Made by a program: the position numbers and the translations under genes. 64,000 nucleotides of DNA, taken from NCBI RefSeq assembly GCF_016806835.2, contig NZ_CP086111.1:1223001-1287000 (forward strand). Direction: 5' to 3'. Position 1 is the stretch's first letter. Every line of letters starts with the position of its first letter. Positions 48,843 through 52,677 of this stretch are shown here, one piece after another. The notes beneath the pieces were generated by a model, which had not been told where the DNA came from, did no database searches, and was given only the letters and a program-made list of their open reading frames with translations. The DNA is from Skermanella rosea. GTDB lineage: Bacteria > Pseudomonadota > Alphaproteobacteria > Azospirillales > Azospirillaceae.

Positions 48843-49313
48843 ATGTCTCGTCGTCGTCGCGCGGAGAAGCGCGAGGTTCTGCCGGATGCCAAGTATGGCG
48901 ACCGCGTCCTCACCAAGTTCATGAACTGCCTGATGCTGGACGGCAAGAAGTCGGTCGCGGAAGCGATCGTCTACGGCGCGCTGGAGCGCGTCGAAGGCCG
49001 CGCCAAGGCCGACCCGGTCCAGGTCTTCCACGATGCCCTGGGCAACGTGAAGCCGCACCTGGAAGTCCGGTCGCGCCGCGTCGGCGGTGCCACCTACCAG
49101 GTTCCGGTCGAGGTCCGTTCGGACCGCGCCCAGGCCCTGGCCATCCGCTGGCTGATCAACAGCGCTCGCGCCCGGTCCGAGAACACCATGACCGAGCGCC
49201 TGTCGGGCGAGCTGCTCGACGCCGCCAACCAGCGTGGTTCGGCGGTCAAGAAGCGCGAAGATACCCACCGCATGGCGGAGGCCAACAAGGCCTTCTCGCA
49301 CTACCGTTGGTAA
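48843..49313 (+). CDS. rpsG: 30S ribosomal protein S7
   Basis: Full-length S7 (156 residues), starting [20 protein letters not shown] and ending NKAFSHYRW. It nucleates assembly of the 30S head and contacts the E-site tRNA. AAGGAG precedes the ATG. The EF-G-like gene follows after 42 bp. Confidence 0.99.
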
Positions 49314-49355
49314 TCGCTTCGGCGATCTGACCAGACAGCAGTCCGAGAACTCGAC

Positions 49356-51434
49356 ATGTCACGCTCCACGCAGCTCGACCGGTATCGCAACATCGGCATC
49401 ATGGCTCACATCGATGCCGGTCGGACGACGACCACCGAGCGGATCCTCTACTACACCGGCCGGTCCGGGAAGCCCGCGGAAACCACCGCGGCTTCCGGCG
49501 CCGATGCCGCGTGGGCGGGTGAGGACGAGGAGCGGGGCATCACGATCACGTCGGCGGCGACCACCTGCTTCTGGAACGGCCACCGCATCAACATCATCGA
49601 CACGCCGAGCCATGTCGACCTTCCGGTCGAGGTGGAGCGGACGCTGAGGGTGATCGACGGCGCGCTGGCGGTGTTCGACGCCGCGGTCGGGATCGAGCCG
49701 CAGTCCGAGGCAGCCTGGCGGCGAGCGGACCAGCACCGCGTGCCGAGGCTGTGCTTCGTCAACAAGATGGACCGGCCGGGCGCGGACTTCTTCCGCACCA
49801 TCGGCATGCTGGCCGATCGGGTCGGCGCGACCCCGCTGCTCCTGCAGCTGCCCATCGGCGGCGGCGACGGCTTCAGGGGCGTCGTCGACCTGCTGGGCGA
49901 GCGCGCGCTGGTGTGGCAGGACGACGGGCTGGGCGCCTCGTTCCAGGAGACCGGGATCCCGGCCGACCTGGAAGCGCAGGTCGCCGAGTACCGCGCCAAG
50001 CTGGTCGAGGCCGCGGTCCAGGTCGATACCGAGGCGGCCGAGGCGTTCCTGGCCGGGACCGTCCCGGACGTGGCGGCGCTGAAGGCGCTGATCCGCCGGG
50101 GCACCTGCGCGGCGGAGTTCGTGCCGGTGCTGTGCGGCTCGGCCTTCCGCAACAAGGGTATCCAGCCGGTCCTGGATGCTATCGTCGATTACCTGCCGTC
50201 CCCGGCGGACATCGGCGGCATCCGGGGCACGGAAGGCGAGGGGCGCGACGAGGCGGTCCGTCCGGCGGACGACGCCGCGCCGTTCTCCGCCCTGGTCTTC
50301 AAGGTCATGTCGGACCCGGTCGCGGGCTCTCTGGCCTTCGCCCGTGTCTATTCCGGCACCCAGGCGGTAGGCGGGACGGTACTGAACCCGCTGAAGGGCG
50401 AGCGGGAGAAGATCGGCCGGATGCTGCAGATGCAGGCCACCGCGCGCGAGGATGTGAAGCAGGCCATCGCCGGCGACATCATCGCCTTCGCCGGCCTGAA
50501 GCATACCGCCACGGGCGATACGCTGTGCGACCCGTCGCACCCGATCGTGCTGGAGCGGACCGAGTTTCCCGAGCCCCTGATCGAGGTCACCGTGGAGCCT
50601 CGGACCGGGGCGGACGCGGAGAAGATGGCCGCCGCCCTGCGGCGCATGGCGCAGGAGGATCCCTCCTTCGCCGTCGCCGCGGACAAGGAGCCGGGCCGGA
50701 CCGTCCTCCGGGGCGCCGGCGAGCTCCAATTGGAGATCCTGGCCGACCGCCTGAAGCGCGAATTCAAGGTCGATGCCAAGGTGGGCGGCCCACGGGTGGC
50801 CTACCGCGAGACCGTCTCGCAGCGGGCCGAGGTGGACCATACCCACCGCAAGCAGGTCGGGGGCGCCAGCCAGTTCGCCCGCGTGCGGCTGGCGGTCGAG
50901 CCGGCCGCTTCGGCGAGCGGCGTCCGTTTCGAGAGCAGGGTGGCTTTCGCCGTCCTGCCGAAGGAATTCGTCCAGGCCGTCGAGAAGGGCGTCGAGGCGG
51001 CCGGGAACGCGGGAGTCGTCGCCGGCTTCCCGGTGACCGACGTGGCGGTAAGCCTGCTGGACGGTGCGCGCCATGACATCGACAGCTCCGCGCTGGCGTT
51101 CGAACTGGCCGGCGCCGCGGCGTTCCGCGACGCGCTGGGCAAGGCGGGGCCGGTGCTGCTGGAACCGGTCATGAGCGTCGACATCGTCACTCCGGCGGAT
51201 TTCGCCGGCGGCGTGATCGGCGACCTGAGAAGCCGTCGCGGACGGATCGAGCAGGTGGACCAGCGCGGGGACGCGGCGGCGGTGACCGCCCTGGTTCCGC
51301 TTGCAAACCTGTTCGGATACGCCAATATCCTGCGGTCCATCAGCCAGGGCCGCGCGCATCATACGATGCAATTCGACCACTACGAACCGGTGCCGCAGGC
51401 CATCGCCGATGAGGTCCGCGCCAGGGTGGCGTAA
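49356..51434 (+). CDS. Divergent elongation factor G-like protein in the fusA position
   Basis: The 692-residue protein aligns with EF-G from end to end (G domain, then domains II-V, ending FDHYEPVPQAIADEVRA). Key residues differ. The P-loop is HIDAGRTTTT, with R23 for the usual Lys. The G3 motif is DTPSH, with S85 for Gly. GMGELHLEI is GAGELQLEI. The region between P-loop and switch I is TTAASGADAAW instead of the usual HDGAATMDWM-like stretch. NKMDR and ERGITITSAATT are retained. No good ribosome site precedes the ATG, unlike its neighbours. It sits between rpsG and tuf, where fusA normally lies. The frame is clean and codon use is similar, so it is under selection. It may be a GTPase-impaired paralogue; a canonical fusA should exist elsewhere. 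Confidence 0.85.
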   Translation: MSRSTQLDRYRNIGIMAHIDAGRTTTTERILYYTGRSGKPAETTAASGADAAWAGEDEERGITITSAATTCFWNGHRINIIDTPSHVDLPVEVERTLRVIDGALAVFDAAVGIEPQSEAAWRRADQHRVPRLCFVNKMDRPGADFFRTIGMLADRVGATPLLLQLPIGGGDGFRGVVDLLGERALVWQDDGLGASFQETGIPADLEAQVAEYRAKLVEAAVQVDTEAAEAFLAGTVPDVAALKALIRRGTCAAEFVPVLCGSAFRNKGIQPVLDAIVDYLPSPADIGGIRGTEGEGRDEAVRPADDAAPFSALVFKVMSDPVAGSLAFARVYSGTQAVGGTVLNPLKGEREKIGRMLQMQATAREDVKQAIAGDIIAFAGLKHTATGDTLCDPSHPIVLERTEFPEPLIEVTVEPRTGADAEKMAAALRRMAQEDPSFAVAADKEPGRTVLRGAGELQLEILADRLKREFKVDAKVGGPRVAYRETVSQRAEVDHTHRKQVGGASQFARVRLAVEPAASASGVRFESRVAFAVLPKEFVQAVEKGVEAAGNAGVVAGFPVTDVAVSLLDGARHDIDSSALAFELAGAAAFRDALGKAGPVLLEPVMSVDIVTPADFAGGVIGDLRSRRGRIEQVDQRGDAAAVTALVPLANLFGYANILRSISQGRAHHTMQFDHYEPVPQAIADEVRARVA

Positions 51435-51486: not shown

Positions 51487-52677
<1,191 letters not shown>

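What the first reader, a model, noticed from the sequence alone, without database searches (positions are those of the whole stretch)
49356..51434. EF-G-like protein with P-loop Lys to Arg and G3 Gly to Ser replacing fusA in the str operon
R23 replaces the P-loop lysine that binds GTP phosphates in translational GTPases, and S85 replaces the DTPG glycine. GELHLEI is GELQLEI, and the segment between P-loop and switch I is changed. The frame is open for 692 codons and NKMDR is kept, so it is not simple decay. The ribosome site is poor, unlike that of rpsG or tuf. It could be a specialised factor (ribosome recycling, rescue or a slow GTPase), with the true fusA elsewhere, or a neo-functionalised paralogue in the old locus.
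Basis: partly seen in the sequence, partly recalled or inferred. Interest (0 to 1): 0.85.

Follow-up and report, generated by a model that had tools for sequence, protein, structure and literature searches.

The report
Retired elongation factor G gene
In these bacteria the normally near-untouchable gene for a core protein-synthesis motor (EF-G) seems to have lost its motor parts after a second EF-G gene took over, yet the old gene is still kept under selection, which raises the question of what an EF-G without a normal GTP switch is good for.

Summary
Confirmed: window 49356-51434 is a 692-codon EF-G between rpsG and tuf with K23R, G85S, H458Q and a replaced switch I. A canonical EF-G ("B") lies elsewhere in the genome. 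All five genomes of the genus (Skermanella, by a record) hold both. Between them the str copy ("S") is 67-95% identical, B 96-99%, S7 100%. S is under purifying selection, dN/dS 0.15-0.25 against 0.03-0.09 for B, so it is not a dead gene. B has the stronger codon bias in 60 of 60 genomes with both. Erosion of S (>=8 of 196 near-invariant sites lost) is seen in 43 of 72 B-positive and 0 of 33 B-negative rows, mostly in domain IV. Skermanella and three genomes of family f49 also lose GTPase motifs, with the same P-loop K->R; in f49 only domains I-II remain, in frame. Reading: native fusA retired from translocation after B took over, kept as a non-cycling accessory protein. Loss of activity and remaining function are inferred. 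Against a simple rule: 29 of 72 B-positive S are not eroded.

The parts
49356..51434 (+). S: altered str-operon EF-G (fusA), 692 codons
49422..49424 (+). codon 23, P-loop Lys to Arg (CGG)
49464..49526 (+). codons 37-57, replaced switch I; 19% of positions conserved within the genus
49608..49610 (+). codon 85, DTPG Gly to Ser (AGC)
50727..50729 (+). codon 458, GELH His to Gln (CAA)
50826..50885 (+). codons 491-510, domain IV loop 1 (GGSGQFA to GGASQFA)
50928..50975 (+). codons 525-540, domain IV segment with both glycines of VGG replaced
49334..49355 (+). weak ribosome-binding region of S
48843..49313 (+). rpsG (S7), 100% identical across the five genomes of the genus
51487..52677 (+). tuf (EF-Tu), 99.5-100% identical in the three genomes where it was read

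Best explanation
S is the lineage's native str-operon fusA, retired from translocation. Shown: a complete second EF-G (B) exists outside the operon, with stronger codon bias and, in this genus, much slower protein change; the eroded S rows counted all come from B-positive genomes; S is still under purifying selection. Inferred: B was gained laterally in several lineages and took over translocation; S then lost the domain IV tip that enters the decoding site (a form that might still recycle ribosomes), and in Skermanella also a normal GTP switch (K23R, rebuilt switch I, G85S in most). Least certain: S is kept as a non-cycling accessory factor that still folds as EF-G, may hold a guanine nucleotide (P-loop with Arg, G2, G4 and G5 stretches are conserved within the genus) and may touch the ribosomal GTPase centre.
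For: Second EF-G with all canonical motifs; both copies in 5 of 5 genomes of the genus; S 66.7-95.4% against B 95.9-99.3% identity, 10 pairs each, and S7 100%; dN/dS of S 0.154-0.254, B 0.033-0.085; B codon index above S in 60 of 60 genomes; >=8 of 196 sites lost in 43 of 72 B-positive and 0 of 33 B-negative S; contrast inside families f49 and f29; P-loop stretch 95%, G2 93%, G4 85%, G5 93% conserved within the genus, switch I 19%.
Against: B is not sufficient: 29 of 72 B-positive S lose fewer than 8 sites. Looser selection on S is clear only in this genus and slight in g12; in g11 and g3 the median dN/dS of S is not above that of B. G004 keeps G85. The weak ribosome site is no mark of S alone. 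No expression or activity data. Lateral gain of B rests on tree position (0.90) and patchy presence.
Confidence: 0.7

Rival explanations
1. S is a working recycling-only EF-G (with RRF), as reported for the str-operon EF-G1A of Pseudomonas aeruginosa, and B is the translocase.
For: Published precedent with the same gene arrangement (PMC3832671). In B-positive relatives the loss is mostly in domain IV (8-34% of near-invariant sites) with the G domain little touched (1-3%).
Against: In Skermanella 19% of G-domain sites and 23% of domain III sites are lost too; P. aeruginosa EF-G1A is a working GTPase (abstract); the f49 remnants have no domains III-V.
Confidence: 0.15
2. S is a slowly decaying leftover whose frame is held open only because it lies upstream of tuf in the operon (polarity, translational coupling).
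For: Fast change, weaker codon bias than B, truncation in f49 directly upstream of tuf.
Against: dN/dS far below 1 in close pairs (0.154-0.178, upper bounds at most 0.254) and 0.179 (0.118-0.251) for the f49 remnant; selection for an open frame alone would not hold amino acids; motifs are conserved unevenly.
Confidence: 0.12
3. S is still a normal, if unusual, translocating GTPase that tolerates Arg23.
For: All five domains and RGITI, DTPxH histidine, NKMD and GSAF are kept; the predicted fold is EF-G.
Against: Switch I replaced, domain IV tip altered, 34 of 211 near-invariant positions changed; a canonical B is present with stronger codon bias.
Confidence: 0.03

Closest known systems
Pseudomonas aeruginosa EF-G1A (str operon) and EF-G1B (elsewhere), PMC3832671 (abstract, introduction, discussion seen)
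   Same: Two EFG I proteins; the off-operon one is the translocase, the str one is not.
   Different: There the two are 84% identical and both are active GTPases; here 51% identical, with P-loop, switch I and DTPG changed in S.
gcEFG2, PMC4342817 (passages seen)
   Same: A second EF-G in some Alphaproteobacteria; B may be this kind (not tested, no reference sequence in hand).
   Different: The passages give it as of unknown function and say nothing of a changed str copy.
Bacteroides EF-G2 that translocates without GTP hydrolysis (seen only as cited in PMC12775393; the original is not held)
   Same: An EF-G paralogue without GTPase activity.
   Different: S is not of that family (397.5 bits, cut-off 1000) and sits in the str operon.
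EFG II (PMC3150367, abstract, section 6 and passages seen)
   Same: Divergent EF-G beside a canonical one.
   Different: EFG II lacks RGITI; S keeps it and scores as TIGR00484 EF-G. The genome has a separate divergent EF-G, L003.
Mitochondrial and Borrelia EF-G1/EF-G2 pairs (introduction of PMC3832671)
   Same: Split of elongation and recycling.
   Different: S scores lower to mitochondrial EF-G2 (454 bits) than to mitochondrial EF-G1 (496 bits) and far lower than to bacterial EF-G (864 bits).

Membership tests
EF-G (EFG I, TIGR00484) | Score above curated cut-off and domains I-V | tested here: met
   861.4 bits, cut-off 659.4; Pfam domains
EF-G (EFG I, TIGR00484) | Place in the str operon between rpsG and tuf | tested here: met
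EF-G (EFG I, TIGR00484) | P-loop lysine | tested here: not met
   R23 in S of 5 of 5 genomes of the genus
EF-G (EFG I, TIGR00484) | DTPGH (G3) | tested here: not met
   DTPSH in 4 of 5 genomes including the window, DTPGH in G004
EF-G (EFG I, TIGR00484) | Ribosome-dependent GTPase and translocation | not testable with these tools
   needs purified protein
EFG II | Absence of RGITI | tested here: not met
   RGITI at 60-64
Bacteroides EF-G2 (NF058620) | Score above curated cut-off | tested here: not met
   397.5 bits, cut-off 1000
Tetracycline ribosomal protection protein (NF012153) | Score above curated cut-off | tested here: not met
   336.4 bits, cut-off 775
gcEFG2 (for copy B) | Grouping with published gcEFG2 sequences | not tested
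   no reference sequences in hand
Recycling-only EF-G (EF-G1A, mitochondrial EF-G2) | Splits ribosomes with RRF without translocating | not testable with these tools
   needs biochemistry

The most novel reading that the evidence does not exclude
After gain of a second EF-G, str-operon EF-Gs have more than once been turned into GTPase-silent, non-translocating proteins that bind the ribosome or a nucleotide and are kept by selection, with the same P-loop Lys to Arg change in two lineages and, in one, a half-EF-G of domains I-II only: a pseudo-GTPase class made from one of the most conserved translation factors.
Probability: 0.35. Interest if true: 0.85.

Novelty: new variant of a known kind. 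Interest (0 to 1): 0.62.

Why it matters
[quoted passage not shown] Here it does not. The series from intact S, through domain IV erosion, to loss of GTPase motifs and, in f49, of domains III-V, is a natural dissection of EF-G: it lets one ask which parts serve translocation and what an EF-G that cannot cycle still does. It also warns that picking fusA by its str position would pick the wrong gene in these bacteria.

Tried and rejected
Absence of S in G012, G035, G047, G078 and G079 (only B at E 1e-150) was considered as loss of S and rejected: rpsG is not found there either, and G035 holds an S fragment. Low model confidence at the P-loop and switch I was rejected as evidence: the canonical control L010 shows the same. 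The stop flags for S of G007 and G049 were not followed base by base; their open frames are 692 and 693 codons long. Near-invariant sites were first defined with B-negative S rows in the reference, which is circular for that comparison; repeated with no S row. Fisher's p and the rank test are not used, since related genomes are not independent. Common descent of K->R in Skermanella and f49 was considered because the EF-G tree joins them (0.974); S12+S7 put the f49 genomes among f49, so convergence is preferred, not proven.

Left out of the 72 and 33 rows: G426 (137-codon S fragment at a contig end), G103 and G475 (S not found), G012, G035, G047, G051, G078, G079, and f49/f29 genomes with S only in part or not seen (such as G463, G468, G469, G471, G478, G486, G493, G498). 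Of family f13 only the three B-positive genomes were examined for S; G207 was not.

Literature: searches (0 papers) gave listings with no report of a dismantled str-operon EF-G; the library is open access only, and I read listings, not every paper listed. That domain IV tip mutants hurt translocation more than recycling is recalled, from no call.

Full report
What is there. Window 49356-51434 (+) is an open frame of 692 codons between rpsG (48843-49313) and tuf (51487-52677). It is an EF-G by domains and score (TIGR00484 861 bits, cut-off 659; Pfam domains). The switch I stretch 37-57 is replaced, while RGITI, the switch II histidine, NKMD and GSAF remain. It departs at 34 of 211 near-invariant EF-G positions. 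I call this copy S.

A canonical fusA is elsewhere. The own genome has a second full EF-G, B, at G000:C1:2623927-2626032 (-), 51% identical to S, with ordinary P-loop, switch I, DTPGH, GELHLE and domain IV loops, and also a divergent EF-G (L003, 31% identical, best model NF009379). The 5 genomes of the genus all have both S and B. The genus is taken as Skermanella from the named record L009, 70% identical in S and at zero distance from G001.

S changes fast, its neighbours do not. Between the five genomes (10 pairs each) S is 66.7-95.4% and B 95.9-99.3% identical; compared with the window, S7 is 100% and S12 99.2-100% in all five and tuf 99.5-100% in the three where it was read. S is nevertheless under purifying selection: NG86 dN/dS 0.154-0.254 in six pairs, upper 95% bounds at most 0.32, against 0.033-0.085 for B. 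In the three closest pairs domain V gives 0.00-0.04 and the G domain 0.20-0.21. NG86 ignores codon bias. In other genera the contrast in dN/dS is weak or absent: medians S 0.127, B 0.157 in g11; 0.156 and 0.104 in g12; 0.128 and 0.142 in eroded g3; 0.135 and 0.202 in uneroded B-positive g3. Within the genus the P-loop stretch with R23 is 95% conserved, G2 93%, G4 85%, G5 93%, switch I 19%.

Expression hints. A codon index built from the window's ribosomal and tuf genes gives 0.54-0.67 for S of the genus, 0.755-0.809 for B and 0.845 for tuf. B is above S in 60 of 60 genomes with both in hand, uneroded S included; the weights come from one genome, a caveat for distant ones. The ribosome-site estimate of S is -3.0 kcal/mol (median of 5), against -5.85 in 10 B-negative rows of the family, -6.1 in 17 of f49 and -6.15 in 6 of f29; but B itself has a median of -3.3 (59 rows) and g3 S -8.95 (40 rows), so this measure does not separate the copies.

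Family survey. Of 82 genomes of the family 71 have B and 11 do not. S was recovered from 76; in five of the other six rpsG is missing as well, and G051 shows no EF-G I. The 10 B-negative S are canonical. In B-positive genomes S runs from canonical to eroded. Outside Skermanella the loss is mostly in domain IV (8-34% of near-invariant sites by group, G domain 1-3%, domain III 0-9%); in g2 the HDxDSS loop is gone.

Other families. Among 387 sampled class genomes B-like genes outside the family are in f13 (3), f49 (2), f29 (1) and f23 (1). In f49 (39 genomes) B is in four; three of these have an S of 395-399 codons, ending after domain II, with DAGRTT, no DTPGH and no RGIT, after rpsG and, where the contig shows it, just before tuf; in the fourth no S was found; the 17 whole S read from other f49 genomes are canonical, and those genomes show no B. 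The closest pair of remnants has dN/dS 0.179 (0.118-0.251), like the B pair (0.186). In f29 (9 genomes) only G426 has B; its S, seen for 137 codons to the contig end, lacks much of switch I and reads DTPLH; the six whole S of the others are canonical. The three f13 genomes keep the G domain but have lost 26% of near-invariant domain IV sites.

Counts and trees. With near-invariant sites taken from 19 outgroup and 43 B rows and no S row (196 columns), at least 8 are lost in 43 of 72 B-positive and 0 of 33 B-negative S; at least 10 of 94 G-domain sites in 8 (five Skermanella, three f49) and 0; at least 3 of 30 domain IV sites in 45 and 0. So 29 of 72 B-positive S are not eroded by this measure: B is not enough. 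Missing domains count as lost in f49. Root-to-tip length of S is 0.71 on average with B and 0.28 without; the ranges overlap (minimum with B 0.358, maximum without 0.471, G010). The rows are related and not independent trials. The firm minimum is separate events in f1 (f13 may be its sister, 0.805), f29 and f49, because S12+S7 put the B-positive f29 and f49 genomes among their own families (0.985, 0.959). B is one clade (43 of 43), and the f49 B joins Skermanella B (0.90), which suggests lateral transfer. The EF-G tree also joins f49 S to Skermanella S (0.974), which I take as attraction of long branches.

Mechanism. Shown: B present; S altered; S selected; B more codon-biased. Inferred: B is the working translocase; S gave up translocation, often first by the domain IV tip, and in Skermanella and f49 the GTP switch. 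What S still does is open. For relatives with an intact G domain a recycling role as in P. aeruginosa EF-G1A is attractive (PMC3832671: abstract, introduction and discussion seen). For Skermanella I favour a non-cycling accessory protein that may still hold a nucleotide. A structure prediction folds all five domains (mean pLDDT 83.2; the 50 listed Foldseek hits are EF-G, TM 0.82 to 6n0i) but says nothing on the active site, since a canonical control is equally uncertain there.

Known or new. A second EF-G in some Alphaproteobacteria is on record as gcEFG2, of unknown function (PMC4342817, passages), and splits of EF-G work are known. The searches listed no report of a dismantled str-operon EF-G, and one study states its stability as an assumption (PMC3150367: abstract, section 6 and passages seen). 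Hence a new variant of a known kind.

Noticed in passing
window 49620-49622 and 50727-50729 (codons 89 and 458): Leu89 and Gln458 lie where fusidic-acid resistance changes are known in other EF-Gs (F88L named in the title of PDB entry 3zzt; the H457 site is recalled). Gln458 is in 5 of 5 genomes of the genus, Leu89 in 3 of 5.
   Followed up: no
L003 (G000:C1:67114-69084): A third, divergent EF-G-like gene with 33%-type matches in many relatives; best NCBIfam model NF009379.
   Followed up: partly
L348, L349, L350 (genomes G474, G376, G310): Half-EF-Gs of domains I-II under purifying selection between rpsG and tuf; what a 395-399-codon EF-G remnant does is unexplained.
   Followed up: partly
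L355 and L356 (genome G103): A B-like EF-G (65%) without any S found; rpsG sits at a contig end, so it is open whether B is the only EF-G there.
   Followed up: partly
L152 (G010) and L132 (G028): Two g3 genomes without B in near-complete drafts; G010 has the longest S branch among B-negative rows, so B may have been lost recently or be missing from the assembly.
   Followed up: no
G000:C1:4021478-4021864 (L008): A match of 34% identity to S outside the window in a 436-codon frame, probably a second tuf gene.
   Followed up: no
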